Source: Owenia fusiformis
Lineage: Eukaryota > Annelida > Polychaeta > Sabellida > Oweniidae
Direction of reading: 5' to 3'
DNA: 64,000 nt
Assembly: GCA_903813345.2 (NCBI GenBank)
Contig: CAIIXF020000006.1
Location: 17,984,348-18,048,347, forward strand
Shown: piece by piece, positions 21,501 through 62,045 of the stretch
How the letters are laid out: each line of letters starts with the position of its first letter
Numbering within the stretch: the stretch's first letter is position 1
The notes under the pieces: model-generated
Told to the model about the DNA's origin: nothing
Seen by the model: only the letters and a program-made list of their open reading frames with translations
Database searches by the model: none
Translations under genes and position numbers: made by a program

Positions 21501-24500
21501 AAAAGTGGAAGTCCCCTTTTTGAAGCTTTGAACTGAATTTACACTTCTTAACTCATTCAATACTGGGGCAAAAAGCACTATAATACTGACGATATTTTGA
21601 AAATTGCCATATATGGTACCTCTGAAATAATATATATTGTATATACATGGGCATACATATATAGTGTTATATAGTGCTGAAATTGATAATTTATCCATAC
21701 AATTTAAGAAAATAGGTATGTCAAAGAAGATGGTTAACCAAATGTTGCCTTGATAGCTCAGAAAAAATGAAAAAACTTTCCTATTTTCTCTACAGTCCTT
21801 ATTGCCCCTTTAAATACCTACCCTCTATCATAAAGTATACAGTACGGAAGACTAAATCTGCGTAGGAATGTCCAAACATCGCTATATGACCAGTCTAATA
21901 TAGGACTAACACGCATGAACTGTGGCCAATCAGCATCAGTCATACTGAAGCTTTTTAAATGCTCTGAAATAAAATATATATTACACTAACAAGTTAAAAG
22001 CTCTGTATCTTCTAGTGAAAGGTATGAAGTTTTTAGATTTACAGGAAAAGGTAAGAAATTACATGCTAATAGAGCCAAGGACTGATTACACCATTTCAAG
22101 CAACCAGGGTACCTTGTTTTCAACTGTAATGGAGATCATCATCTAAAACGACTACATCATCCCACTCTGTATACCTTGATCACTCTCTACATACCTGAAT
22201 AAGGGTCAGTTGCCCGGGTACCCATAAGGACAGCTTTTATGTGAGGGTGGGATGTTTTCAGCTCACCAAGTGAGTCTCTTATTCTACCAAGTAAGCTTAT
22301 TGAGTCCAAATTATAACTGAAACATATGGAATAGTCAAGTCATTTTAGATTCAACATTCTATTTTGAAGCATATTACCTAACAACTGAATTTAACTACAC
22401 AGGTAAGCTTGATAGTTGGATATTCACTCTTGCGTGTGATTTTCTCATGCGATATTTCATCATACAGTTATTGTATTTCATCTGATCGAGTTCTCAGCAA
22501 CAGACTTTCAACTCTTACTTGACCTCAGTTACAGTGCTGTAGCCCCTTCCCCCTGTACCCCCAGACTATTTTACCTATAATGTATTGTATCATTGGTCGT
22601 ATCTTGGACTGTGGATGATTTAAAGTACTCATGTCTTGTATCCTCACCTTTGAATTCAAAATCTTGATATCTATCTACAATATACATGTATTGTAAAAAT
22701 AAAGAAAAGCCTACGTTTTTACTCCTTTTTCTATAAATTGTTCTAGTTCAGGGAATGGTAGCCCTCTACGTATATACAGTGATTGTATTTTGTCGTTAAA
22801 TTCAGGATATTTTTTCTTTATAACAGCATAGCAAAGGTGTAGCAACACAGTACAGTCCTTGCCTCCATTGAAGCCTACACAGACCTCAGAGAGCCTGGAA
22901 ATACAGCACATGTACATAAATATGGAATTATAACAGACACCCCATTTTTAAACTCATATTATACAACTTAAAATATTACTCATGTTCATTGTAACAGACC
23001 CAATTCCACAAAATTGTGGTTTATTCTTATAATGGTTTGTGTTGAGCGTTAGTTTGTATCATCATTTGCCAATAATCCAGAGTTTTGTAGGTGTTCTTTT
23101 TTGTACAGTCATTTACAAAATATTGGAAATTATTTATTTAGTTTGCAATGCAAGGTGGATTATAAGGGTATTCTATTTAATCCATTCTATATCCATTTAA
23201 AGATTCTCTATATTGAAAGATGGCAGCACTGTTTGTTTACATCAAGGTCAATAGTGCTGAATAAATAATGAATAAATCGAGCAATTATAGGAAATGAAAT
23301 GCAACACGTAATAAAGAGAAAATATTAATATTAGGATTAGTCCAAGGAAACAACAAAATTGATATTCTAAAAAATCAACAATATTGGTTGATCATCATCA
23401 AGTCCTACTTTTAGAGTGTACTTTTGTGCTGGCCAAATTAAGGGGTTACTTCGCACATTTCACATTTGGAAACTGAATTAATTTGATTCCTTGTCTCAAT
23501 GACAAGGGGCCAATTAAAGAACCCCTGATGCTATCCAGCACTTTTACCATCCACATTTAAGACCATGCAATGGGGACGCCAAAAGCCACTAAAAGCCTCT
23601 AAATTAAAATCACCAGATCATTTTTCAATGAAAGTCCAACCAGGAAGTCTTGGGTTCAAATCTCAAAAATGGAAATATTTTTTTCCTTAACATAAATCCA
23701 TATTTTTCCATATACAGGGAAACATACTTCATCCACAACTAATTGGAAACTCAGAGGATTCAAATCTTCACACTCAGTGCTCTCCCCAGGATTTTTTTGT
23801 GCGGGGGATTTATTTTGCTGTCTCTTTATTTCAAATCTTGTAATTTTTTGTGCAATATTTTCAGTTTTTGTAATTTTTAGTGCAACATTTTCGGATTTTG
23901 TAATTTTTGTGCAACATTTTAAGGATTTTTATGTTTTTAAGGAGGATTTTAGCTGCCACACAGAAATAATGGAGGAGCATTTTTGTGTTATGGAAGTGCT
24001 GCACCTCAGAGATTTCAATGTGGGGAAAGACATTATCTGTAACTTATATTAAAGGATGAGTTGGTTAATATTTTCCCTGTATCGATTCTTCCAAAAATGA
24101 TTAAAATCGAACTTATCTTACTTGTATTTTTCAATGCATTCTTCTATAGTTCTTATTGCCGATTTGATCTTTATGTCTAATGGATCAGTTCCAGAGCCTT
24201 CTATTGTTCTGTATATCCTTTCAGAGGCATCCTCTAATGGATGGGGATCGTAATCAACCAACTGCTCTGAAATGTACAACATTGTTGAATCATTTTACAT
24301 GAAGATATCTGAGGACTGATACATCTAAGATAATCTTGAGTATTGTCACCCTTGTATAATGATTCAATGCAACACAGAGGAAATACTTCGCTTAAGACTG
24401 AACCCAAATCAGCAACTCATTATTCCGAGCACAAAGTTAAGTTCTGAACTGGCCTCTATATAAGTCAGACAATTTTAAAGTTTAGCAGCTCTGCCCTCAC

Positions 24501-39871: not shown

Positions 39872-42800
39872 ATGGAGTCTATCCTTGCAGCTGTCAACAG
39901 TAGCATAGTCCCTCTACAGGAGTATCTCCTACAGGGGAGTATACTGGACTCTTCTAGAGATATGCTGCTACACAGATTAAAGGGACTCTGTGATAATGTA
40001 GAGGCAGGAACCGTATCATTCCAGGACCATGAGATGGTCTACATCATGAGTGAGTAAATACTAGTATATAATATGAATTTTCCCGTGTGACTTCATTTCT
40101 AGGTGTTTCAATTTTGGGATCCTTTCTTGGATCAAGCTGCTTAGTGAACTAGGTAGCACTGAAAACCCCCTACACCCATATATCTTCTCATTTACTTACT
40201 AAGTAGCCTGTTGCAAGTAGGGGTCCCGCGATACATTATCTTTAATTTCGATACGAGCAACGATATTTACCTCACGATACGATACAAATGATACGAGCAA
40301 TATAAGAGTATAACAAATATTTTTATTATTTTTAAAAAACATAGGGGTAAACAAGACATCAAGATGCCAAATGTACCAACCACCGAACTCGTGAAACAGT
40401 ATGAAACTATTAATGTCCTCCTAAAACTAATGTCCAGTGTCCATCCATGATTTTTTCATTGAAAGAAACCGGATATCTTATATTGGAGATACATTCTATG
40501 CCACATTACACAAGGAAAATAACAAAATGGAAAAAATGGGAAGATACAATCTTATCTAAACTGCTTTCGAACATGATTTTGCTGTTTTTGGAGGTTGAAA
40601 ACGATACAGAATTTTAACCGATATTCAAGTTAAGTATTGATACGCTTGTATCATGCCTAATTGCTTGAGTGCTCGAGCAAATCGGAGCAATCGTGAGACC
40701 CCTAGTTACAAGGCTATATTCTGTATAAAAAGGAATATCAAAACTTCAGATAGGCCTACAGGAATGATCTAGATGTCTTTTCTTGTTTTAGCTCACATGG
40801 CATTTGCTCTGTCCATTTGTCCATCCATCTGTTTGTCTGCATGCCTGCCTGAGAAATTTGAAATGGCCACCATTTTTATTGCGAGAAAATTATTTACTGA
40901 ATTTGTTCTCATATGTAGTACCAAGGCTTTAAGTCATAATATTGATATTAGTTTAGATTGAAATCACTATATGTTATGTGAGCCCAGTGCCCATCCCATG
41001 GCACTATTTATTTTGTTTAGGGACACTTTTGATTTTGATAATCTGAGAATACTTAAACACTCTGTTTACTTTCATAAATGGGAATAAAATGGAAATTATT
41101 GATATTTTCCACTTATTTTTACATTTTTATTTGAAACTTGATTGATAGCAGGGGTAAATATGTGAAATGAAACAATAAAATCGTTTAAAAAACCTGAAAA
41201 AATGGGTGAAAATATTAATTGTTTTTATCTTATCTCTAGACTTCATTGCAGTGAAATCAAAGAAGTAGTGTTCATGTTCATGTAGACAGGTCAGTTTGTT
41301 CTAAAAGATAAAAAGATAAAATGATAGAGCATTCTGACATGTAATTTAGAATTCGTTTGATTCTCACTGAGATGGAATGATTTTTACATATCACCTCTTG
41401 GGAGGATTCAATCATGTGTCAGAAATTAGATAAATTCTATGTGTAATCAATTAGAAGTTGTGAAATTGCACTAATTGAAATATAATACAAGAAAAAACAG
41501 ACTTTAATCATTTGAAAATCTCTCACCATAAGTATTAAGTGTAAGGTTATATGATGCATCACTTCTATTTGATATGATCAATAAACAAATTTTTAAAGAA
41601 AGATGGCGTTAGTATTTACATCCAACAGTGTCAGTTTTGTATTTAAAAAAATGTTGTTGTTTTTGACTCACAGTGAGCCTATGGGATCCAGGCATCCGTC
41701 CGTCTGTTGGTCTGTCTGTCCATCCGTCAACATTGGCAGCACAAATTAAAACTACTATTCGGATTGAGTTATATCCACATTCATTTTATGCATATCCATA
41801 ATGCCTATTTGACCTATCATCGCCATTTCCCAAGTTCGCCCAGTTTCCGAGAAATTGCGGATTTTGACGTCAAAAAGTCAAATTTTCTGTAAATACTAGA
41901 CACTTTGTTGAAGTAGAACTTTTAAATAACTTTTAGTAGTTCTGTATATGCAACTTATGTCCTCTGAAGATTTCAAAGCTGTGGGAATTACAGTTTTTGG
42001 TGTTTACTCGATAAAATTTGACAAAAAGTAGGTCATTTTCAGGAAACTTTCTCATGTATAAAGTCAATGGCAGGTTTTGTGATTGACAAGTTTCTCAAAG
42101 TTTGCCTTATCCTTTTTTCACCTTTTCACTGGGGTGAATACAGCAAATTCAGGTGGGACCTTATCTGGGGAATGTGCTGCGTGGGGCAATGCTTCCATGC
42201 TTCCATGCCAAGCTCTGTTATTGTATTTTGGACAATAGAGGATCTGTGAGCAGGGGCATTATCTTGGTGGAACCTATAGGTTGATATTGCTCTTTGTGGA
42301 CATTAAAGTGTGTGGCTAGGGGGTGTCCACTGTAAACATCAGCTGATTGAGATTCTGGTGCGATATTCCTCCCAGATCTCTTTTCATCGTTGTTAGATAA
42401 TACATGTGCATACAATTCAAACTGACAATATCAAGATTTGACCATATCAACAGTTTTTATTCATCAAAGTGTTTATTTGATGTATAATAATAATTCATCA
42501 TGTAAACCGTTAAGGTTGCCCCGCATACCCGTGACCATGGTTACCATAGTAACCATAACTTTGTCAATACTAGTTCTGTTGTCCGGAAATTTGGATAGAA
42601 TAAGGTCAGATACAGTATGTGTTGCTTATGAAAGTTTCATGAAGACAAAAGCAAGATAACAAAAGTTATAACAAAATTAGCAATACTTTTTGAATGCCCT
42701 GTACAACTACGGTATTCTCTCTAATAAATGCACAGTGTGTCTCTCAAATTCTCCTCGAGGAGATGTCTCATTGTGCACAGAAATGATAGTGGTAAGTGAA

Positions 42801-45800
42801 TTGATTGAATTCACCCTATTATCGCCCAATGATTTTTATTTTTCTCAAGAAAAGTCAAACGTGCGTTTATTGGAGTATGTGTGCCTATTAGAGATAATGC
42901 GGTACTTCTAAGAAGATAGAAATGGATTATCCTACACTTAGTGTACTAAATGTATAACATTAAAAAATAAATTTGATGTTTATTAGCAAAATGAATAACC
43001 GGAGGATATCGTAATGATATACTCAGGGCGGAGGATATCGTGACGATATACTCCGGAAAACCCAATATGCGGAGGATATTGTGACGATATACTCCGCTTG
43101 TTGATTTCCCGCCAAATTGACTCTATTTGGCATGAAATTCATTTTGCAATAATACAAGGGGCGATCCATATATTCTGATAAAAATGCTCTCATTTTGTGA
43201 TTTTTTCACATATCCCTTTCATTTTTTCAGAACATGTAGATTATGTAATTACACATACGATGCTACTATTTTAGCTATATTTTAAATTAATTTTGAAATA
43301 AGGTTGCTATGGTAACCTGTATTTAGGGTAGGCAGGTCGGTTAAATTATAACGTCAAAAATAGATAAATATGTTAATTTAATCATTCCTCGGTACCTATT
43401 TTAAGCAGACCAAACGCATCTTCCAGTCATTGCCAACTATTCATTGATCTGTTCCATACCCCTGTTCCATACCCCTGTTCCATACCCCTGTTGCCCTTGC
43501 CCTAATTTATACAGTGGGATAGCTATCTTTTCATGAGTAACATCTCAATTTATCATAGTATTATTCTCTGTCTGCAAGCTCTTCTTGCAACCAGATTGTG
43601 GATGATCTTCAACAGTGACCATGCCTTCCTCTTTACAATACTACCTATAGATGCTTTATGCAGATATAACACCTTGCCCATGCACTTAATAAGTCCATGT
43701 ATGTCTCTGAACTTATTCTTAAAAGAAAAGAAATTTAATTGTATTCCCTAATGTATCCGTTAATGTCACACTCTGCATCAGCCACATTAACCTCATCTGA
43801 CAATTTGATTTTTGGTGTGTCTCATAACATGTAATGTCAATTGGCCCATTCTGTCTTACAATGCTATTGTGATTTGTTGTGATGTTATAGTGAGCACATA
43901 TAAACATTTGTTTAGCAACAAACAAAGAGTGAAGAGTAACAATACCAAACTCTTTTAGAAAATGCATGATTTATGATTATGATCATTTACAATGATCACG
44001 TTATTATGATATTTATATGTTATAATTTAATTGACCTGCCTACCCTTAATACAGGTTACCATGGCAACCTTATCTCATTGATAATTTAAGATATAGCTAT
44101 AATATTTTAGCATTGTATGTGTAATTACATAATCTACATTTTCTGAAAAAATAAGAGGGATATGTCAAAAAATCACAAAATGAGAGCATTTTTATCAGAA
44201 TATATGGATCGCCCCTTGTATTATACATTTAGTACACTCCTTGTAAGTGTAGGATAATAAGAACATCCTATGATTTTTTTTCAGAATATCATTTTAATCT
44301 ACTCGGTGATATTAATACATGCACTCGTTCGCTTTGCTCTCTCGTGCAGATATCAATATCACCTCGTAGATAAAAATGATATTCCTCAAAATCATAGAAT
44401 ATCCTATAATTATTAAATGTTGTTTATGTTATGAAATGTTGTTTATGCTATCATTAAAGATCATTTCATTTCAAATAAACATCCTACTTTGTAGACTGTT
44501 TACAAGTAGACAGTCGGCAGTTCCTTGATGAAGGGGAGGGGGGTTGGGGGTAAAGAGCCAGAAACTTTTTATAGTTATCGTTTCGTTCCTCAAATAAGGA
44601 GTTGCTCGCTGTAAGTAAGCAAAATGATACGTAGAAATGAGAAGGGACACATGCATTCTTTTTAAAAGGCAATTAATTCACCAACTGTATCAGCTAATTT
44701 TTCAAAAAAAGGAAATAATTGTTCAACAAGCAAACATCATAAAAAACAAATTTCCACTAGGAAAAATGAATATTGCAACCTGCTTACTGATCCGTAAGTC
44801 CTAATAACATTATAAAATTAATCATAAACGGATGCCTCTTGTCTTTAATCATATCCCACATCAGAGGTATCATTTATGTTAAATAGAGCATTGAAACCTG
44901 AATGTTTCAACACATGTTATTATTCACTGTAATATGCAAGGGGCTTTTACTTGATTGACTTTCCTTAATCAGGAAAAATCACTTCCAGTTGGAAGCATTA
45001 GGTAATCATTACAAAAATGCAATCATAACAAAATATATATAACATTTTCAGAGTTGATAACATGAGCTAGAGGTACCAGGATTTGTATAAATGAAATGTG
45101 TGTTTTCATTATGGCAAAGTAATTTTACTAGCCATGTAGAAACAGATCAACAGCATTCTACGTAATATCCTATGTATCATTTTTTATCATAGAAAGTAGT
45201 CCAGATTGTCAAATACTATTTATATTTATTCATATCACCCTTGTTCATTTATAATAATACAGGCCTGTAGCCAGGATTTACCGAGGAGAGCGGTTTTACC
45301 AAGGAGGAGCTTTTTGATAGTTCATTATGCATCATGCTTAAAGTGCTCAGAATGGTGAAAACTGCATGATTTTGAAAGAATTCCTGGCCAGGGGTGAGGA
45401 GCGGCCGCTCCCTCCGCTCCCTCCGCTCCCCCCCCCCTGGCTACAGGCCTGTAATACAGATTTAGTGTCATATTCATAAGGCATTTGGCATTCCTGAAAT
45501 TGAAATCCACAATTTCATAGTTTTTTATCATGATTTCAGGGTTCAGCACACTCAACATAAAACTCAAAATGTACTCTGTAACTATATCATGGTTGCAACC
45601 TATAAACTAGTAGCCCTAAATGATGTTTATATTTCAGGATCTAACACAACAAACCAACAGCCAATGATATTTAGAGCAAGACGTTCACTTACACACAGAG
45701 AAGCCCCATGGTAAGTAATGAATGAAATCTGAGTAACACATAAAAATAATTGTCTAACAATAGAACAGTTGAAACTATTAGGAGTTGCAATTAAATTGAT

Positions 45801-48800
45801 TGATGATTTATTTGCCTATAATTAAATTTAAAACCTTGTGAAAATTACATTAAAAGGGAAATCTGTTAGAAAATACTGTCAAAGAAACTGAAGTATACTG
45901 ATAAGGAAATTAGACATTGTCTGAGAACTCCCATTCTGTGGTTCTTTTCCTCAGTATGCAAACTTGGCAGGACACTTTTAGAACAACAGACCATAGCATA
46001 AATTTTCTTTTCTTTCCACTGATTTTGTCCAAAAATCAAAAAAACTTTGAGCAAAAGCATTGTACATTTGACAAATAACTAAATAAATACTTGAAAACGA
46101 TAACACTATAATTATGATTCAACTTTCTGATAGAGTTCCTGCTCTGTCCGGAAAGCATTCTCTACTGTAGCCCTGTATTATACTATACTGTATCCAATCT
46201 TTTCTTGATATATGAACCTCATTCTTTCTAATTCTATACCATCGGCAGAATTGCAGGTAATAGGATAAGATATCAATTTTATTCAATTTATCATTGTGTC
46301 TGGATTGAGTGCTTGTGCAATTGTTATTTACTCATAATTACTACTTCATCTATTACTATCATACATTATCCCTCATATACTTATGGCATTATGTCCTAGA
46401 ATAAATTCGATTTTTTTCTAAAGAGGTATTTCATGTATCTTTGTACTTTCTTATTTTATATAAATCGTTGGTTGACAAAGATGTTCATATATATTTTAGA
46501 CAAACATTTTTTCATTACACAGTGAGTCAGATATTTCATTCACTTTTTTTATGGGTCGTGGCTCCACCTTGTGGGTCGAGCCACGGCTCAACAATCCTCT
46601 TCATTGTCACATTTGTGACGGCGGTTGGTGAGCGGTGTGTGGCAGTTGGTGATCGGCGGTTGGCGGTCTGAAACAAATTCTTAAAACTTCCATTAACTTA
46701 ACAAATACTGTTTAGACTGACTTCAGTTTTTTTCAAAATCATCTACAAGTCTTCAGTAGTTCAAATTTTACTTTTTAGATTTGAAATTTTACCTTCGTTG
46801 ACCTTCTCCAGGTCTAAAAAAGGTCAAAAAGGTATTTTTTCAACTTGCTTCAAATTGACCAATATTTTTTTCAAAATCATCTAGAAGTTTTCAAAAGTTC
46901 AAATCCGACTATAGATTCGATGACATTCTCAAGGTCAGAAGTTCAAATCGTACTTTATATTTAAGATTTGACCTCCAGTGACCTTTTCAAGAAAAAAAGT
47001 TCAAAAAGGTATTTTTTCAACTTGCTCCAAATTGACCAGTATTTTCAAAATCATCTACAAGTTATCAGAAGTTAAAATCTGAGTTCAGATTGATATTATT
47101 GTGAGCAACGAGGAGTTACACTTTGTTATGTTAATACCTTGTTTAATTTGTCTAATTCACAACTCCAGTAAAATAGTAATTGTATTGCTATGAAAATACA
47201 TAAAGTTTAACAAGAAACCAAGTGGGTGATAATAGAATATTTGTACTACAACGTGGTAAAAAAGACACATATATTGTAATTCAATGCATCATTCCAGATG
47301 AATATCTACCTTCCATTCTTAACTAATATTATCTCAAAATACAGTTGTAGTCCAAAATGAACAAAGGAAATGTTCAAATTCAAGAGTCACGTTTCAACAT
47401 TCAACTAAGTAGGCTTGTGCGCACATCATTTTCGTTAATCACTGTGCTTTTGTTTGGTCGCATAAGCCCCTTCCATATTCCACTGACGACTCAATGATGA
47501 TAAATATTAGCAGGCACTTGACTTTGGCCTCCTGCCAGGATGTTTTACTTTTTTGTGATTTTAATTGATCCAAGATTTTAATTTGCTGAAATACTACTTA
47601 AATCAGCATGCAACATATTAAATTTCACAGATTATATTTTAGCAATACAGTTTTCCCTGAAAACTGTAAAATTTAGGTTTGATTTAAAAACGACCAAGTT
47701 ATAGTGGGACGTATGCCGAGTGGCTTACAATCAGGGATAGTTAAGTTGACTCTGGGATTTCAGAGTTTTTATCTGGTAAAGTTCCAAAGTTTTTAAATCG
47801 TGCATACATTTTCATTAGTGGTCTCTCAAAAAACTCAGAATTTTACTTGATGTTACAGGTGTCCTTTGATTTTATTTTTGACTCAAGTTTGGTTTTGTGG
47901 GTGAGTCCCATCATTTCATTAGTTCCAAGAGCATTTTGTCTACTCAGCTCAGCCCTCTGCCCAAAACTCAATTACAAATAACTCAACAATTACACAACAA
48001 CTTATTGTTCACTGAACAAATTTATTTTGTTATGGTAGATGTTTCTGAAATAACATCCACCTTCCTATATTGGCACATGTAATCGTTAACAATTTTTATG
48101 TAAATATTTGAATGAATTATGACATAATTTGTCGATGATGATAAAAAATGAATTCATAATGTATTGTTGTTCTAGGCACCTACGCTATCTTGGAACAACA
48201 GAGCCAGTAGCAGACAAAAGCCGTCACACATTAATGCGCAGCTCAATAGATGTAGGAACGTCAGACAATTTAGTTCAATTTCTTCGAGATATTGGATTCA
48301 GGTGTGTAAATGATGAAACATGTTATCTTAAAACTCAAGTAATTATAAAATCTCTGAGTGACCAAGAAGCATACAAATGTACAGCACAGTGTATTTTATT
48401 CCAACAAAATGTAGCCCTTAAATTATCCCCTATGGCACTATTGTTGACTGATGGTGAGACAAATTGTCAAATCAATGATAACTAAAATGGTTATAACACT
48501 AAAAAAGGGGATATAAATTTTTTAACAAATTATCTCATAAAACTACAGTGTACAGTGCTATGGCTTTTGAAATGCAGGGCACCTGAAATTATTTATAAAG
48601 CTACTAAATGGTCCAAAAGTGAATTTCACAAGACAAAAATGGCTGCCATTTCGTTTTTGGAACCAGGAGTCATAGGCAGGTTTTCTGTATGATGTTCAAC
48701 AAAAATGACTTAATACGGGTGGTCAAAAAAATGGAAACCCTGTATTTTCCTCATATCTTTGCCATTTTGGGTAATTATTCCCTGAAATTTGACACATATG

Positions 48801-51800
48801 TACAACATTCAATTTCCTACCAGCTAACCATATTTCATGACCATCAGATTGATAGTCACAATGGTACAGCACTTTGAACAAGATGCCCCAGTGTGGCCAC
48901 CATTGCGCTATTGGCAAATCTGAACAGGTTGTCAATGATCTGACTACATTTTTCAGCAGGTATGGCCTGAATGACATGGATGATCTGCTTTTTGAGGTAT
49001 GCAGTTGTCCTGGGGTTATTCTCATACACTCTTTTTTGGTGTATCATCACAGGTTGAAGTTAGGTAGGGACATTTTGGATGATAGGTGCAGGTTTGCCGA
49101 AAGTGCAATATTGGCCACTGGAGCATGTTGTTTAAAGTGCTGTAACATTGTGACTATCAATTTGATGGTCATGAAATATGGTAGACCAGTAGGAAATTGA
49201 ATGATGTACAAATGTGCTGAATATCAGGGAGTAATTTCTTAAAATGACAGAGATATGAGGAAAATGGCGACAGGGTTTCCATTTTTTTTACCACCCTGTA
49301 CATGCTACTTTTGTTGATGGACTGACAGACAGACTGGCGGACAGATGAATGGATGGACAGATGGACGGACAGATAGACGAACAAGTGAGCGATTGCAAAA
49401 CCTTCACCTGAAGTGAGCTAAAAATATCAGTGTGTTGTATCATTGACACAATACTTAGTATTCATCCAATTTTTGGAATGAGCCAGTGATAGATTTTGAT
49501 TTTGTTTGATTCCAATATTGTCTGCAAAATGATTTGGAAGTCTGCAAAGAGAAATGTTATGGAATATACTTAATGGGATGATGTTGCATGAGAAATAGAT
49601 CAAAATACTTCTCATTATACGTACATGCAAAGATAAAATCATCTTCATCAGTAATGCCACTTTTCATTCAACTAAGCCAAATTTTGAAATGAAGTAAAAA
49701 ATGTTGAATTTGAATAAAATGAAATAACCAAGCCTCATGAGAATACTCAATGTCAAAAAAAAATAATTACTGCACTTAAATTAGAGTTGATTTATTTTAG
49801 CGTGACGAGCTGTTGACATTTTGATTGAACTGCGTTCTTATTACACTCATTACAAATTTCACTTTGGTGCGTATCTCTCCAATTTTCATTTAAATCTTAT
49901 GTTATAGTATTAATCAGGATCATGATGCTCAACTTTAGTGATTTCACTGGGAATTTTTTTCAATATTCCGCACAAACCTAACTTTAGCTGTTTTGGTCAA
50001 AATATCAATATTTCAGCTTTTTTGGCAATGTGTAAACACTGTAGACCTTCATACATGGTGCAGCACTTTCTTGATCTAATGCTGTAACCTTTGAGGGATT
50101 ATTATCCCATCGAACAAAGTTCGGAGGGATATAGGGAACGCCTCCGTCCGTCCGTCCGTCCGTCCGTCCGGGCAATAACTCAAATACCGTTGGCCCGATT
50201 TTGTTCATATTTTGTACACATATACCCTATGGGGGTAGAAGTTCTGCTCGAAAGCCGATTTTCAAAATGGCCGCTCATTTCAAAATGGCGGCCATTTTAG
50301 TGCCGATTTTACAGTAATTTAGGTACAATATGTAAAACTGTAATAGCGATATGTTTTAAATGTAAAAAAATTATAAAGGACATTAATAAAGCTACAATGT
50401 AGATATTAAAAAAGCACATGGCAGCCATCTTGAAAAATGGCGGCCTTTACTCGTTATTTTACGATTTTTGCTGTAACTCGAAAAGTAGTGGAGCGATTTT
50501 GTTCATATTTGGTATGTGAATACTATAAACATTGCACACTGTCTAAAGACACTTTTGGTAGAAGGCGGCCATTTTGAAAAATGGCCGCCATTTTAACATA
50601 TTTTACTATAACTCGAAAAGTAGTAGAGCGATTTTGTTCATATTTGGTATGTGAATACTATAAGCATGGCACACTGTCCTATGACATTTTTGGTAGAAGG
50701 TGGCCATTTTGAAAAAAAAATTGAAAAATGGCCGCCATTTTAAAGTATTTTACTATAACTCGAAAAGTAGTGGAGCGAATTTGTTCATATTTGATATGTG
50801 AATACTCTAAGCATGACACATTGTCTAATAAAATTTTGGGGAGTAGTCGGCCATTTTGAAAAATGGCCACCATTTTTATGTATGTTATTTTACAAGTACA
50901 TGTGTGCGATTTTTCAAAAATTTTATAGGTGGCTACTAAAAAGCATATTATTTCTTCTGATGACAACTTGGCTAGTGAGCAACCATTTTGAAAATGGTGG
51001 CCTTTCTGGTGTGTTGTTTTATGATATTTGCTATATATTTCATTTGTAAAAATGCCAGCCATTTCTGTTCGATGGGATTCGCTATGCTTTGGCGTTGCCG
51101 TTGTTCTGGTTGAACTTTGCAAATGAAATTTTCATACTTTCCAGTTATATTCATGCCTTTGTTTTTCAGGTTAGACCATGAATTTGTGTTAAAAGGCTAC
51201 TTTTTTCGAAAGGGCAGGATGAAAGTGACTGTTTCCAAAGTATTCAGAGTAAGTCCACCTATTAACTAATAAAATGATTTTTCTTATCTTATACATGTTC
51301 ATATGTACATATTTATTACAGGGTGACAAAAAGAATTCAACCCATGAATAGCAGGTTGCACTTTTTGGTCATCCTGTATATCTTATAATGTGAATGAAGA
51401 TACAAGTTGGAATACCTTGCATGTCTGCAAAACTTGAAAACTGCAAAATCTGTGCCAACAAATACATATTAAAAAGTGTATGTAAGGATCTATTTTGTAC
51501 ATATGTGCCATTGACAATGAGTTCATGAAAGTGATATCAGATTTTATTTCACTGTTCTTTATGTTGACCCAGTTTTTCCACATTACATATCTTTCTTTCT
51601 TACAAAAGTCCATGGCTTATTGTCCCAATGAACAGTAGTTACATAGTGAAGGCCTCTGTCAGTCATTTCATTTGTTCACCCGTCAGTCAGTCCGTCCATC
51701 CGGAAGGTAACTCAAAATAAATACAAGATTAGTGGACAGACAGATTTTCGTTAATTTTGAGATCTTTCTGAAGAAGACTTTATATTTAAGATTTGACCTT

Positions 51801-54800: not shown

Positions 54801-57800
54801 TTTTTATTTATTAAAATCAATGTAACATATTTACAGGTTTTAGTGGCTATGACCCCCAAGAGGGAGTATTAGGTGCCACACAATGGTATTTACAATGATT
54901 TGTTAAATATTACAAGTATTTTTGTTTCAATTAAAAATCGACATACAGGACTTCAACAGGTACAGTGTAGTTCAATGGGCAACGTTAGGCTGTCAAACTT
55001 ATGAAGGATGCTTAAAATGTTAAAACATCAATTTAGGCTGCTAAACATCTTTTTTTATTTTAATAGCAGTCACAGTCACAGTCACAAAGACGAAAATAAT
55101 CATACTGCTCCAAACGCCGATATTTGATATTTATTCATCTCTCAGGGAAATTTTCAAATGGAGATTTTCCCAATGAAGGTATACATACAACCAATAGCTT
55201 ACAACAATACTCAAAAATGCCTTTCAATCTTAACTGTAAATACTGTAAGTATTCAAATGACACAACTGCAACTTGTAAATGCATTTAGACTTACCTGATA
55301 CATCGCTGTCCGTTTCACTTGACTACCCACTTTTAACTGTAGAAGACAGTTGCCTCTTGCTCTTCCCAACGTCAATTCCAATTTCTTCTTCTAACGAGGT
55401 CGAGGCATCTTCATGAAAACTGATACGAGAAAAGGTTTGCCTATGATCCTTTTACAGAGGAAGTTTGGACCCTAAGGCTTTTTTATTATTCTATCAACAG
55501 AGATGTATTTGGTGTCTATAGAAAGTAGAATCAATTCCCTTGAGAATGTGCTATACAGTATTACCGTGCGAACTTGCTGTGAAACACAATCTCAATTTCT
55601 GTAGGACAGGGCCACCATTTTTCATAAAATGGTATGATTTATTCCGTATCAATGTAAACAAAACCATTAATATGGTACGATATAAATGAGACCATGTTAA
55701 GCCCTACCTTGATACAATGGAGATTGGCTATTTCACCTTGGGACTGCCCAAACACCCACAAAATCCTGGCAAAATCTACTTTATATATTCAGTATTTAGC
55801 CATGAGATGGCTGAATATTGCACTTAACTAAGTCACACATGGAAATCAGATAGGTCGTCATACTGAAGGAAACATCACTCCAGACCCCAGGAATACTAAG
55901 TTCTGCTTTAATTTTTATGTCAGCACCAGTAGTGGTAATTTGTTGTATACAGTACAGTCTTTTTGTAGACAGTGTTTGGCAGTCTGCAGTTATTATTCTT
56001 ATAAATTCACAAATTTAATTCAGGTATATCTTCATATGAACATGTAACATATGCAATATATGTCAGTTTTGTTTTATTTATTTTGATATATGATGTGGGT
56101 AATTGCATCAGATGAATTAGTTTTCTTAAAGGAGAAGTACATAGGTACTTGTACAATATGGTTCTTAAATACAGAATGTGCACACTGGTATACATATAAA
56201 GTAGTCTCCATAGCAACCTAATGGTGTGTTTTAAAACAAAACTTGATTTAGTATCAATTAGTTCATTTCATTGCTCAGTTCCTAGTGTATTCATCCTTTA
56301 TTCATAAGTTGATTAAACCACACTTTTTGGTGTTCAGCTATTTCATAATCAGCTTAAATGAGTTGTTAAAGGCCCCATGTAAAGTTTAAACCTCCTTAGC
56401 TTATATTTGTAGTCCTACCCAATGTTATCAAAATACATGCAGTAATGGATTATACAGTGATACAGAATACTAAATGAGTTGTTAAAGGCCCCATGTAAAG
56501 TTTAAACCTCCTTAGCTTATATTTGTAGTCCTACCCAATGTTATCAAAATACGATGAAACTTTTCAATTTGATTTCCAAAAGTTAGGTTTGAAGGACCTT
56601 TTGTTCAAAAAATTGTGAATTCAAATAAAATTTTAATTGTCACTTACATACTGAATTAGCAGATAGTACATGTACTAATATCCAAAGAAAAATATCTATA
56701 GCGTGTTTTGGTGCACATGTTTCAGATGGTCCAGCCAAACAATGTACTTGTGTTTGTGTAATTATTTCAGCTGAACAATTTTGACACAGCAATAAGTGTG
56801 TATTTCTATGTATTTAAGATAGTTCAGCCAGATAATCCTGATCGGGTGGAACCTTTGACCGGATCATACCTGGTAGAGCTCAGTGTTGTCACTTCTGCAG
56901 GCCAGGTATTTAAGCATTTTATTCACTTCATCTATATAGTACTATCTAATAGACTAGATGAGAGTAGAAATAATCTTGATTTATGTCATTGAAAATTCAA
57001 AATTCAGTCATTGATGTCATATTTGGAAATTATATGAAAAATAACATCTAGAAATGTGGTTTCAAAAAGAGTTTATCGACTTTGAAAATTTAATTTTCTT
57101 TGAAAATGTGATTTTTAGGTCGGTGAGATTCCCCATAAACCCCATGTTGTAAAATCACAAAAAGTGAAATATCTTTTCTTGTGTTTTTGTATTATATTTC
57201 GTTTACCACCAATGAAGGTGAGCAATAGCTCTTGGTTATATTCTGTATATATATGGTCGTAATCAATGCATTATCATAGAAGGCAGCTGATCCAGGAACC
57301 CCTCCTTGAAGGAGCCCTGTGTTCTTTTATGTGCACTCATGCATAGGCATACAAGTACACACCACAGCCTTTTGTATGAGTCGTGGACCACTCAGTCAAA
57401 CACCCTGAAGTACTTTATGCAACAAGCCAAGTGCCTAAACCAGGGATAGAATCTGGGACCTATGCGTAATTGGTACATGTGCTCTACCGTTGAGCTATAC
57501 GGGTGGACTGGGCAGATATTTTCTTTTATTGGACATATCTTAATTTGTATAACTATCAGATACATAAGGGTAGTATGAAAAGTTGACCACTAAAACTGAT
57601 GAGTTTTGAAGTTTAAGAGAACTTTGTAATACCCTGCCATGTTATTTCCCCGATTTTGAGTTATTGGTTGACAGCTATAAGAAATTCTATGATATCACTA
57701 CTATACAGAGGTCTTTTATTGATAACTTTGTAACTTCTTAAACTAAAAGGTACTGGTGTCATATTCCCATCTGAAATTCAGACTTAAAATCAAATTCACA

Positions 57801-60800
57801 TTTAGCAAGCCAAATATAAAATTACATTCATATCTTTAAGCCAGGCATAAAAATATATTCATATCTGAGAGTCATGCATAACAGATGTCATATTCCCATC
57901 TGAAAACCACTTTGGGCAAGATACGGGCTGCGGGAAATATACTGAGGGAAAAATGAACATGTATTCACCTCATATCTTTAAGCCAGGCATAAAAATATAT
58001 TCATATCTGAGAGTCATGCATAACAGATGTCATATTCCCATCTGAAAACCACTTTGGGCAAGATACGGGCTGCGGGAAATATACTGAGGGAAAAATGAAC
58101 ATGTATTCACCTCATATCTTTAAGCCAGGCATAAAAATATATTCATATCTGAAAGTCATGCATAACAGATGTCATATTCCCATCTGAAAACCACTTTGGG
58201 CAAGATACGGGCTGCGGGAAATATACTGAGGGAAAAATGAACATGTATTCACCTCATATCTTTAAGCCAGGCATAAAAATATATTCATATCTGAGAGTCA
58301 TGCATAACAGATGTCATATTCCCATCTGAAAACCACTTTGGGCAAGATACGGGCTGCGGGAAATATACTGAGGGAAAAATGAACATGTATTCACCTCATA
58401 TCTTTAAGCCAGGCATAAAAATATATTCATATCTGAGAGTCATGCATAACAGATGTCATATTCCCATCTGAAAACCACTTTGGGCAAGATACGGGCTGCG
58501 GGAAATATACTGAGGGAAAAATGAACATGTATTCACCTCATATCTTTAAGCCAGGCATAAAAATATATTCATATCTGAAAGTCATGCATAACAGATGTCA
58601 TATTCCCATCTGAAAACCACTTTGGGCAAGATACGGGCTGCGGGAAATATACTGAGGGAAAAATGAACATGTATTCACCTCATATCTTTAAGCCAGGCAT
58701 AAAAATATATTCATATCTGAGAGTCATGCATAACAGATGTCATATTCCCATCTGAAAACCACTTTGGGCAAGATACGGGCTGCGGGAAATATACTGAGGG
58801 AAAAATGAACATGTATTCACCTCATATCTTTAAGCCAGGCATAAAAATATATTCATATCTGAAAGTCATGCATAAAATTATATTCACATCTGCTATAGGG
58901 CTCAGATTTGTTGTGAAACTCGCAACTGAAAACCACTTTAGGCAAGATTCATCTGAATAACTGAACTTTAACTGAAACGGTCCATGGAAATAAACTAGTA
59001 TGTCAAGACCTGGACAAACTGCTTCAGAATTCCTATTTTCAATAAAGAATTTGACCAAACTTACATGTTCCGCCCTTGTTGTTTATCTTTGTGTTTCCCA
59101 GAATTCCAATGACCTTCATGTGGGTATTGTAAAACTCTCTGCTACTGCAGCAGGAAAAAGAAAGTCATCAAAATGATCACAAGTATGGGACAAAAGTGAT
59201 TATCAGCGTTTTAGTTAAGAAATTGTTCATATTGTTTTATTTCTAGACTTTTTTGCAATGTGCAGGCATAGAATCTTGTGATTATTTAGAATGGTTTTGG
59301 TTTTTAGATATTAGAGTCTGTAACCCAACTTATCCATATTTTGCATCCAAATTTGAGATTTCACCTTCAATGACCTTCTCAAGGTCAAAAAGGGTCTTTT
59401 TTCAACTTGCTTTTTTACAAGAGGAGGGAAACCCCCCGAGCTTTAGCAGTTTAGCGATGACAGACATATTACGTCTTTTGCATACCACCTTCGTTTGCGC
59501 AAATTCTCACCAATTAGTTTTTGAATATGACACGTCGTTGTCATGTTTTAATCGATGTAAGCATATTCCTTACATCTTTCTTGATGTTAAATGACAGCTA
59601 TAACATGCAATTTTATATACATCAGAAATAAACATAATATTACTCGAAGTGTTATAAGTTGAGTCAGCCTTTTTTGTTTGTCGATTTGGACCAATCAGGA
59701 CAGTGGGTCATCTCAATACAGTTCCCTGCTCCTTTTTCCAATATCATCTACAAGTTCTCAGAAATTCAAATCTGACTTAGATTGAACTCATCATATTGTG
59801 AGCAACTAGGTGGTGACATTTTGTCATGTTAATGCCTTGTTTTCATTACAGCTGAACACTTCCTACTATTAGTTCAATACTTATCATGTAAATTCAATGT
59901 TTTGCTTTTGCTTCTGTCAATAATTTGCAGTTTGTTTACATTTAGAATGCTACTTATTTTCCTTTTATTGAATCCCAAACCTTTAAGAATATTCGCTTTT
60001 CCATTATTTTTATTTCCCCTATGATTAGAGAATGCTGTATTACTATTCACTGATTTATTCATGGCATACAGATTCGCTTGGGCCAGCATTAACAATAACT
60101 TTAAAGGAATGCTTTTTGTCAATTAACTTTTCTCTACATGTCCAGCATTATTTATATAATTATTGGAACTGCTATTGAGCAAAGGATCACAAATTGTATC
60201 GCAAACAATTTCGGCACATTTTGATAATCAGAGAAAAATTGAAAATATTGGCTAGCTCGATGATGTCATAAGTAGTATTTTTTTAAATCAGCAATAAGTT
60301 AATCTCGTTTTTGCATTGTCAGATTTCTACCTACAACCAATGACATCATCAATTTAGCTGATATATCTTAGTTCTTCCTATAATTCAAAAGGTTACAGGA
60401 TTCACCAGAATGATCTATTGATTTGTGATTGTCCATAATAACTGTCTGTATTTGTTAGGTGTAATCATATTTCAAAACTGAAATCTACAGGCCAGTGGCC
60501 TGGATTTATCGGAGGGAGCAGTTTTACTTAGCGGGAAGCTTTTCCCAAGGGCTGGAGCTTTTTGACATTTTTGGCAAAAAAATCATGTGTAAAGTGCTCA
60601 TAATGGTGAGCACTTTACTGCTTGATTTTGAAAGAATTTCTGGCCAGGGGGGAGTGTCTGCTCCCTCTGCTCCCTCCCCTGGCTACAGGCCTCATCTACA
60701 CATTACAAATGCAGTGATACCTATTTACATGTATTATTAGGATGCAATCAAGATATTTTAACTGAAGAATTAATTAGGGATATCTGATATAGCACTGCTC

Positions 60801-62045
60801 TAAATTGCTTCCTGATTACAATTTTATTCAGAAAAAACTATTTAGCAACTTTTTAGAATTAATAATCCCAAAAGGAGCTTAGTTAGATTGCCCCATGTAT
60901 TTAGATAATATCCCATGATTTATGAGTGATATGCTTCATATCCAGGAGCGAATATGATACTAAGTATCTGCATGAATAATCACAGTGAGACTGCAGATAT
61001 AATTACTTAGATGCGAGTAGGTAGTTACCAGTTTCGCCACCAGGTGGCTGATGTCCAGTAAAGGAAAATGTTATCTGTCACAACACAAGAAAAGATATTT
61101 CACTTTTTGTGATTTTACAACATGGGGTCTATGGGGAATCTCCCCGACCTAGAAGTCACATTTTCAATTTTCAAAGTTGATAAACTCTTTTCAAAACCAC
61201 ATTTCTAGATGTAATTTTACATGTAGATTCCAAATATGACATCAGTTTGACTGAATTTTGAATATTTAATGATGTAAATCAAGATTATTTCTGCTTGCAC
61301 CTAGCTGTCTAGTCTATTCATATTAATGTGGATCACAGTGTCATATTTTAATTTTAGCAAAATATCTAAAAGATGTCGGATATAAATGATAATTTTTGAA
61401 AACCATATAGGATATTAATTTTTCTGGACTAAAAGCCATATTTCACGGTTTGGAGAAAATTTAATAATAATTATAGTTTGATATGATTCTGCATTTCAGG
61501 AACAAGTGCAAGAAGAAATGAAGAATTTTGCTGAACAATTAAAACCGTATCCTTTATAGTATATCCTGAAACCATATCCTGCAAGTCTTTCAATCTGTAT
61601 TAAGGTACCATATGAACAAATCATGGTTATTAAAGCCACTTTTCCAATGCTGTCATGGATCACTTTAGTTCTATACTCACAAATCTACTTTTGTTAGGTC
61701 AAAATTTTGATTTCTTAAAAGCAAAGTCGAACAAGTTTTGATTATTCTCATTATAAATTCATGAAAGTCAAGAGTAAATATGATTTTGGAGAACAATACC
61801 TCTATGCGAAGGTGAATGCCATTCTTCAATGTTTAATACCATTCTACAATGTTAAATACCATTCTACAAAGGTGAAATATCAACAACGATGAAATATCAA
61901 CAAAGGTAAAATATCAACAAAGGTAAAATATCGAGTTATTATCAGAATGACAAGATTCAAAATGTTCTTTATTTATTCTTTAACCCCTGACAGATTGGTT
62001 ATATTAGAGAAGGTGGATCACCGGAGACTTCAGCAGAATATGTGA
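39872..62045 (+). CDS. MED18: Mediator of RNA polymerase II transcription subunit 18
   Basis: MED18 is a head-module subunit of Mediator that pairs with MED20 and docks on MED17, linking activators to RNA polymerase II in the nucleus. Seven coding exons: 39872-40049, 45638-45710, 48176-48301, 51170-51248, 56819-56905, 61500-61546, 61994-62045. Phases join cleanly to 213 codons plus stop, close to the roughly 208 residues of vertebrate MED18. Family landmarks in order: EYLLQGSILD and HRLKGLCDN (N-terminal region), FRARRSLTHREAPWHLRYLG across junctions, DVGTSDNLVQFLRDIGFR, LDHEFVLKGYFFRKGRMKV, SYLVELSVVTSAGQ, and EEMKNFAEQLKPLVILEKVD near the C-terminus. Nothing is missing. Introns are large (0.4-5.6 kb) and loaded with repeats. 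The last intron looks U12-type. The start is the only ATG in frame after the acceptor. Confidence 0.97.
40218..40704. mobile_element. hAT-like MITE with near-perfect 8-bp TSD
   Basis: The termini are TAGGGGTCCCGCGAT and ATCGTGAGACCCCTA (allowing small gaps). The flanks are GTTGCAAG (40210-40217) and GTTACAAG (40705-40712). The internal GATACGAGCAACGATAT words repeat. It lies in MED18 intron 2, counting the untranslated first exon. Confidence 0.8.
40773..41640 (+). other. MED18 intron sequence
   Basis: It includes a GTCCATTTGTCCATCCATCT microsatellite-like stretch near 40810. No exon was found. Confidence 0.4.
41660..42110 (+). repeat. Dispersed repeat (inverted relative of 34.1-35.0 kb)
   Basis: It starts CACAGTGAGCCTATGGGATC, then a CCGTCCGTCTG tract and CAACATTGGCAGCACAAATT. 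The body is homologous to the copy in FLAD1 intron 1 but in the opposite orientation. Confidence 0.75.
42926..44258. mobile_element. Long-TIR DNA element of 1.33 kb with a nested insertion
   Basis: The outer ends are ATTATCCTACACTTAGTGTA and the reverse complement of TACACTCCTTGTAAGTGTAG plus GATAAT. The arms continue as GGGCGATCCATATATTCTGA on both sides. The left arm is interrupted by about 190 bp (about 42961-43149) that the right arm lacks. The insert carries three copies of GGAGGATATCGTRAYGATAT (43001-43096). The core has no recognised transposase. Confidence 0.75.
44263..44415. mobile_element. Short palindromic MITE
   Basis: ATCCTATGATTTTTTTTCAG with AATATCATTTTAATCTAC is loosely inverted as GTAGATAAAAATGATATTCC with AAAATCATAGAATAT. 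It is about 150 bp. Confidence 0.6.
45260..45451. mobile_element. CAGGCCTGTAGCCAGG-type element
   Basis: The inverted ends are CAGGCCTGTAGCCAGG and CCTGGCTACAGGCCTG. It is flanked by a shared TAATA. The interior is rich in GAGGAGC words. It is a short relative of the element at 27.13 kb and ends about 190 bp upstream of the MED18 exon at 45638. Confidence 0.75.
46553..47150 (-). repeat. Relative of the 135-bp array element
   Basis: It has the same order as at 18.8-20.9 kb, read in reverse: GC-rich GGCGGTTGGTGAGCGG words, then two to three units with TTTTTCAACTTGCTTCAAAT, ending GTTATGTTAATACCTTGTTT. Confidence 0.75.
48716..49298 (-). mobile_element. Mariner-type element with long TIRs
   Basis: The ends are CGGGTGGTCAAAAAAATGG and CCATTTTTTTTACCACCCTG, each next to TA. 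The arms of about 190 bp are inverted (for example CATCAGATTGATAGTCACAA against TTGTGACTATCAATTTGATG). The core keeps a piece of transposase on the minus strand. It is in the MED18 intron between exons 48176-48301 and 51170-51248. Confidence 0.8.
48856..49050 (-). pseudogene. C-terminal transposase remnant
   Basis: The minus-strand frame reads RVYENNPRTTAYLKKQIIHV and continues with IPAEKCSQIIDNLFRF. This matches the C-terminal pattern of mariner-family DDE transposases (RVYENNP, IP, NL..R). The catalytic domain is absent, so this is an internally deleted copy. Confidence 0.65.
50104..51078 (+). mobile_element. Element with 13-bp perfect TIR and internal tandem units of about 140 bp
   Basis: ATCCCATCGAACA (50104-50116) is exactly inverted as TGTTCGATGGGAT (51066-51078). 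It contains a CCGTCCGTCCGTCCG run and three to four units marked by AACTCGAAAAGTAGTGGAGC and AAAATGGCCGCCATTTT. Its right edge is about 90 bp upstream of the MED18 exon at 51170. Confidence 0.75.
51317..51378. mobile_element. 62-bp TA-flanked mini-element
   Basis: The ends are TACAGGGTGACAAAAAG and CTTTTTGGTCATCCTGTA. It is a tiny deletion derivative of a mariner-like family, 68 bp after a MED18 exon. Confidence 0.6.
51650..52113 (-). repeat. Relative of the 135-bp array element
   Basis: It has a CAGTCAGTCCGTCCATCCGG start, then AAGATTTGACCTTCAAAGAC and TTTTTCAACTTRCWTCAAAT units, ending GTCATGTTAATGCCTTGTTC. Confidence 0.7.
52712..53138. mobile_element. Tigger/pogo-like MITE
   Basis: The termini are CAGTAAAACTTGTCTAATCT and, at the right end read in reverse, CAGTGAAACCTGTAGTATAT, with inward GTGTCCAGATTAGCCAGG. 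TA lies on each side (52710-52711, 53139-53140). CAGTRAAACY with TA target sites is typical of pogo/Tigger derivatives. No coding frame. Confidence 0.75.
53140..54170 (+). other. MED18 intron sequence
   Basis: A 99-codon open frame at 53244-53543 has no family signature or splice context. A short GATACAGGATTTTGGCT repeat (three copies) lies at 53950-54020. Confidence 0.4.
54174..55707. mobile_element. Long-TIR non-autonomous element, 1.5 kb
   Basis: The arms (about 54174-54425 and 55455-55707) are inverted, for example CCAAATACATCTCTGTCGAT against AACAGAGATGTATTTGGTGT, and CAAGTTTGCACGGCAATACT against AGTATTACCGTGCGAACTTG. The core is about 1 kb without a recognised gene. Confidence 0.75.
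56356..56552 (+). repeat. 81-bp direct duplication
   Basis: AAATGAGTTGTTAAAGGCCC through ATGTTATCAAAATAC occurs at 56356-56436 and again at 56472-56552, almost identical, separated by 35 bp. Confidence 0.85.
56950..57195. repeat. Left member of a distant inverted pair
   Basis: It matches the reverse complement of about 61075-61320 (for example GAGATTCCCCATAAACCCCA and CACAAAAAGTGAAATATC). It starts about 45 bp after the MED18 exon at 56819-56905. Confidence 0.75.
57281..57515 (-). mobile_element. tRNA-derived SINE (copy 2)
   Basis: On the minus strand: GTCCACCCGTATAGCTCAAC then GGTAGAGC (A box), GATTCTATCC (B-box region), and a body shared with the SINE at 36931-37173 (CACAGGGCTCC and GGAGG near the tail). 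It is Pol III-type and non-coding. Confidence 0.8.
57837..58875 (+). repeat. 142-bp satellite, seven full copies plus a partial one
   Basis: Copies start with TAAGCCAGGCATAAAAATAT at 57837, 57979, 58121, 58263, 58405, 58547, 58689 and 58831, spaced exactly 142 bp. They are nearly identical. One site alternates between GAGAGTC and GAAAGTC. The array lies in the MED18 intron between 56905 and 61500. Confidence 0.95.
59340..59845 (-). repeat. Interrupted relative of the 135-bp array element
   Basis: TTCAATGACCTTCTCAAGGT and CAACTTGC (59360-59415) resume as ATCATCTACAAGTTCTCAGA to GTGACATTTTGTCATGTTAA (59745-59830). The roughly 330 bp between them is unrelated and may be an insertion. Confidence 0.6.
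60488..60692. mobile_element. CAGGC..TGGCTACAGGCCT-type element
   Basis: It is a relative of the element at 45.26 kb, with GGAGCAGTTTTACTTAGC near the left end and CCCTGGCTACAGGCCT at the right. Confidence 0.65.
61075..61320. repeat. Right member of a distant inverted pair
   Basis: It is the reverse complement of 56950-57195 and ends about 180 bp upstream of the MED18 exon at 61500. The two members bracket a SINE and the 142-bp satellite. Confidence 0.75.
61547..61993 (+). other. MED18 last intron, U12-type (minor spliceosome) signature
   Basis: The donor reads GTATCCTTT, a perfect match to the U12 consensus (A/G)TATCCTTT. Just before the acceptor lies TTCTTTAAC, one mismatch from the U12 branch-site consensus TTCCTTRAY. 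Its likely branch adenosine is about 11 bases from the CAG that ends the intron, within the short spacing these introns require, and there is no long pyrimidine tract. The intron splits a Pro codon (CC|A) in phase 2. If it is retained, translation stops within a few codons (TAG at 61557-61559), removing the last 17 residues. Confidence 0.8.

What the first reader, a model, noticed from the sequence alone, without database searches (positions are those of the whole stretch)
61547..61993. U12-type (minor spliceosome) intron in MED18
The donor GTATCCTTT matches the U12 consensus exactly. TTCTTTAAC sits just upstream of the acceptor at the right distance for a U12 branch site. None of the other introns of MED18 or FLAD1 has such a donor. 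Retention would truncate the last 17 residues, so splicing efficiency could tune functional MED18.
Basis: partly seen in the sequence, partly recalled or inferred. Interest (0 to 1): 0.7.

Follow-up and report, generated by a model that had tools for sequence, protein, structure and literature searches.

The report
Minor-spliceosome intron in animal MED18
The last intron of this animal's gene for the Mediator subunit MED18 carries the signals of the rare minor spliceosome, which makes it a sound but ordinary new example of a known class of intron.

Summary
Window 61547-61993 (+) is the last of six coding introns of a MED18 gene model (213 aa; Pfam Med18 E=3.7e-38; PDB MED18 chain 7emf_R E=3.6e-71, no gap across the junction). 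Protein similarity and the lack of other suitable GT or AG fix the junction. The donor GTATCCTTT is a full U12 match and alone reaches its score among 6,707 GT sites. None of the other 13 donors placed in MED18 (5) and FLAD1 (8) is a full match, though one FLAD1 donor leans slightly to U12. Phase 2 and C at -1 also fit. I conclude a GT-AG U12-type intron, inferred from sequence alone (0.96). Retention would replace 16 residues (not 17) by YPL. That retention tunes MED18 is untested, and so is conservation in other animals: no animal genome was available to me. New member of a known kind; low interest.

The parts
61547..61993 (+). MED18 intron 6 (last coding intron), 447 nt, phase 2, GT-AG, U12-type by sequence
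61547..61555 (+). U12-type donor GTATCCTTT
   Evidence: log2 U12/U2 ratio +18.7 (weakened matrices +12.4); 1 of 6,707 GT sites reaches it (matrices recalled)
61976..61984 (+). U12-type branch site TTCTTTAAC; likely branch A at 61983 (-11)
   Evidence: 11.7 bits; 2 of 6,611 AGs, this one included, have as good a site with A at -9 to -14
61992..61993 (+). acceptor AG, the only AG between 61975 and 62006
39872..40049 (+). MED18 coding exon 1
45638..45710 (+). MED18 coding exon 2
48176..48301 (+). MED18 coding exon 3
51170..51248 (+). MED18 coding exon 4
56819..56905 (+). MED18 coding exon 5
61500..61546 (+). MED18 coding exon 6, 47 nt, ends ...AAACC
61994..62045 (+). MED18 coding exon 7 with stop codon
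61561..61580 (+). two further ATATCCT copies (61561, 61574) just behind the donor; role unknown

Best explanation
The last coding intron of this MED18 gene is a GT-AG, U12-type (minor) spliceosomal intron. U11 with its 48K protein would bind GTATCCTTT and U12 would pair around TTCTTTAAC, leaving the A near 61983 as branch nucleotide; U6atac would then replace U11 and the minor spliceosome would join codon CC|A. The 47-nt exon 6 is probably defined across the exon, by U11 on its right and major-spliceosome factors at the U2-type acceptor on its left. Shown here: gene model, motifs, their spacing and rarity. Inferred from knowledge of minor introns: the removal itself, and exon definition. Not shown: any regulation by retention.
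For: Gene and junction. Donor: full consensus match, log2 U12/U2 ratio +18.7, alone among 6,707 GT sites; the 5 other MED18 donors score -14.2 to -26.3. Branch site: 11.7 bits with A at -11, against at most 4.0 for the 12 other acceptors scored (5 MED18, 7 FLAD1); 2 of 6,611 AGs match it at A -9 to -14, itself included. Branch distance agrees with the 11-13 nt optimum in PMC6717393 (passages). Phase 2 fits the bias of minor introns away from phase 0 (PMC10639083, passages), and C at -1 fits their avoidance of A and G in phase 2 (PMC7367187, passages).
Against: No RNA evidence. The branch core differs from TTCCTTAAC by one base. Pyrimidine content before the acceptor does not discriminate (12 of 17 at -20 to -4, within the 9-14 range of the others). 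The motif RTATCCTTT alone is at chance level in the window. No minor-spliceosome RNA was found in the window at Rfam's gathering thresholds, and no genome was held to look further.
Confidence: 0.96

Rival explanations
1. It is a U2-type intron whose donor and branch region resemble U12 signals by chance, for example with a branch point elsewhere.
For: The motif RTATCCTTT occurs at chance level in this A+T-rich window. U2 acceptor context is not excluded: 12 of 17 pyrimidines at -20 to -4.
Against: T, C and C at +4, +5 and +6 and C at -1 are poor for U2 (donor score +18.7, or +12.4 with weakened matrices, toward U12), and the branch site at -11 is an independent rare coincidence.
Confidence: 0.03
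2. Beyond being U12-type, the intron works as a switch: slow minor splicing leaves it in, giving a MED18 that lacks its last 16 residues, and so limits full-length MED18. (An addition to the best explanation rather than an alternative.)
For: An in-frame TAG lies at intron positions 11-13, and no coding intron follows (sequence). One ATTAAA lies inside the intron at 61629. Minor introns have been described as switches governed by unstable U6atac (PMC3728624, title and start of abstract in listing).
Against: No expression data. A[AT]TAAA is common: 146 on the + strand of the window. The shortened protein still matches Pfam Med18 (E=1.9e-34, 120.1 against 132.3 bits). A survey of over 3000 genomes suggests neutral processes may explain much of minor intron evolution (PMC10639083, title and start of abstract in listing).
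Confidence: 0.15

Closest known systems
GT-AG subtype of U12-type (minor) spliceosomal introns
   Same: Donor GTATCCTTT, branch core one base from TTCCTTAAC, A at -11, GT-AG ends, phase 2, one such intron among U2-type neighbours
   Different: Nothing found that departs from the class; splicing by the minor spliceosome not tested
[quoted passage not shown]
   Same: More than one U12-donor-like motif close together, downstream of a U2-type acceptor (PMC5473595, passages)
   Different: In the USSE the copies are not used for splicing; here the first copy is the donor, and the other two continue GA and GC instead of TT. Conservation untested.

Membership tests
U12-type intron | 5' splice site close to RTATCCTTT | tested here: met
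   GTATCCTTT, no mismatch
U12-type intron | Branch site close to TTCCTTRAC with its A about 11-13 nt from the acceptor | tested here: met
   TTCTTTAAC, one mismatch, A at -11; optimum from PMC6717393 passages
U12-type intron | No polypyrimidine tract between branch site and acceptor (recalled feature) | tested here: inconclusive
   12 of 17 pyrimidines at -20 to -4; other introns 9 to 14 of 17
U12-type intron | Removal depends on U11, U12, U4atac and U6atac | not testable with these tools
   No RNA data and no way to perturb; no genome held
U12-type intron | Conserved position with U12 signals in other animals (supporting, not required) | not testable with these tools
   No animal genomes offered; one scan of prokaryote contigs with MED18 exon 1 confirmed none of 124 pattern matches
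Mediator subunit MED18 | Med18 domain over nearly its full length | tested here: met
   PF09637 profile 1-239 of 243, E=3.7e-38; PDB chain 7emf_R residues 11-207 of 208
USSE | Tandem repeat of U12-type 5' splice sites that are not used for splicing | tested here: not met
   The first copy is the predicted donor and the other two lack TT after TATCCT

The most novel reading that the evidence does not exclude
The donor and the two ATATCCT copies behind it form a cluster of U11-binding sites that makes definition of the 47-nt exon 6 sensitive to the supply of minor spliceosome; MED18 output, and through Mediator the transcription of snRNA genes including those of the minor spliceosome, would follow that supply in a feedback loop.
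Probability: 0.04. Interest if true: 0.6.

Novelty: new member of a known kind. Interest (0 to 1): 0.2.

Why it matters
It adds one well-supported minor intron, near the very end of a Mediator head-subunit gene. If the position is shared or lost or of another class in other animals, it is a usable marker for intron loss and class conversion. If it is retained under some conditions, it would tie minor splicing to Mediator. Neither is shown here.

Tried and rejected
Tried without result. Rfam scan of the window at gathering thresholds: only a vault RNA, no spliceosomal RNA. Search of the own genome: none held. Paper searches: MED18 with U12-type, 0 papers; with minor intron, 0; with minor spliceosome, 1, a review on snRNA transcription (passages); a search for matrix papers gave one unrelated paper; U12-type introns with mollusc and intron retention gave 2; Med18 structure terms gave 1, on other enzymes. 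These cover open-licence full texts only, and supplementary tables could not be searched, so absence from print is not shown.

Considered and rejected or left open. A USSE proper: the first copy is the donor and the others lack TT. Three TATCCT within 35 nt occurred in 2 of 200 shuffles, but 45 of 1,597 hexamers of 10-30 occurrences also show such a triple in this window, so it is mildly unusual and was noticed after the fact. ATATCCTTT at 24213 and 54704 (+): the first lies among exons of FLAD1, which is on the - strand, the second inside MED18 intron 4; neither is a donor of these models. A second U12 intron in FLAD1 (donor GTATACTTC, about 30936, -): left open, since the next exon was not found and I recognised no FLAD1 exon behind any of the 4 branch-like stretches listed between 30900 and 26900.

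Full report
Gene model. Seven coding exons on the + strand (39872-40049, 45638-45710, 48176-48301, 51170-51248, 56819-56905, 61500-61546, 61994-62045) give a 213-residue protein ending in a stop (one search printed 212 because its last exon was cut one base short). It matches Pfam Med18 over 1-239 of 243 profile positions, E=3.7e-38, and PDB MED18 chain 7emf_R (human, as I recall) over residues 11-207 of 208, E=3.6e-71, with no gap across the last junction: KPLVILEKVD against KPLVHLEKID. The six introns have phases 1, 2, 2, 0, 0, 2. The last is 447 nt, the others 2,465 to 5,588 nt. There is no RNA evidence for the model.

Junction. From 61527 to 61600 the GTs are at 61547, 61559, 61585 and 61597, and only the first fits the protein. 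The AG at 61992 is the only one between 61975 and 62006.

Donor. GTATCCTTT is a full match to the U12 consensus of the GT subtype. Of 6,707 GT sites on both strands, 1 (this one) reaches the score; 586 have a ratio above 0, so a weakly positive score means little. The 5 other MED18 donors score -14.2 to -26.3. Of 8 FLAD1 donors, read from exons placed by a recalled FLAD1 probe, seven score -0.4 to -22.3 and one, GTATACTTC, +3.2. With weakened matrices two FLAD1 donors are positive, +3.3 and +2.7 (all). The motif alone is at chance level in the window: 3 RTATCCTTT, 2.26 expected.

Branch site. TATTCTTTAACC, with its tenth base (A) at -11, scores 11.7 bits. The 12 other acceptors scored (5 MED18, 7 FLAD1) give at most 4.0. 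Of 6,611 AGs, 12 have as good a site within -8 to -40 and 2 have it with A at -9 to -14, this one included. The fixed pattern TTCYTTRAC+7+AG occurs 4 times, 0.24 expected; three are copies in the tandem array 18876-20569. The -11 position agrees with the 11-13 nt optimum quoted in PMC6717393 (passages). Pyrimidine content before the acceptor does not discriminate: 12 of 17, others 9 to 14.

Other traits. [quoted passage not shown] PMC10639083 also notes relative minor-intron enrichment in molluscs and in the brachiopod Lingula anatina, so such an intron in a lophotrochozoan would be no surprise.

Retention. The retained reading shares 197 residues, loses 16 (LVILEKVDHRRLQQNM) and gains YPL. 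It still matches Pfam Med18, 120.1 against 132.3 bits. No coding intron follows the new stop, so decay set off by a downstream junction is not expected unless the 3' UTR has an intron (inference). One ATTAAA lies in the intron at 61629, but 146 A[AT]TAAA lie on the + strand of the window. Whether retention occurs is unknown.

A possible extra. TATCCT occurs three times within 35 nt: in the donor, at 61562 and at 61575, the last copy preceded by the same AAACC as the donor. Such a triple arises in 2 of 200 shuffles, but 45 of 1,597 hexamers of similar abundance cluster so in this window. USSE elements are tandem U12-type 5' splice sites not used for splicing, which recruit U11 and activate an upstream U2-type acceptor (PMC5473595, passages); here one copy is the donor, so it is not a USSE. 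A review states that Mediator is required for efficient snRNA gene transcription, that Med26 is required for U1, U2, U4, U5 and U11 genes, and that Med18 is in the head module (PMC5493778, passages); it does not say that Med18 itself is needed for those genes. A feedback from minor splicing through MED18 to snRNA genes is conceivable and is my boldest reading, at 0.04.

Verdict. A convincing U12-type intron by sequence and a new member of a known class. Regulation, and age in other animals, are untested.

Noticed in passing
window 23426-23545 (+): Vault RNA match to Rfam RF00006, 42.8 bits (gathering score 34), whole model 1-99, ending in a run of T (CTTTT); it lies in the FLAD1 region on the opposite strand.
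   Followed up: partly
window about 30936 (-): FLAD1 donor GTATACTTC leans slightly to U12 type (+3.2 bits); the following exon was not found, so its branch site could not be judged.
   Followed up: partly
window 57828-58875: Seven near-identical copies (99% matches) of a 142-bp tandem repeat inside MED18 intron 5.
   Followed up: no
window 61815-61932: Two adjoining short tandem repeats (20 bp x 2.8 and 17 bp x 3.9) inside the U12-type intron.
   Followed up: no
window 18876-20569: Tandem array of about 12 copies of a 135-bp unit, between FLAD1 exons on the opposite strand, holding three TTCTTTGAC followed by AG that mimic a U12 branch site and acceptor.
   Followed up: no
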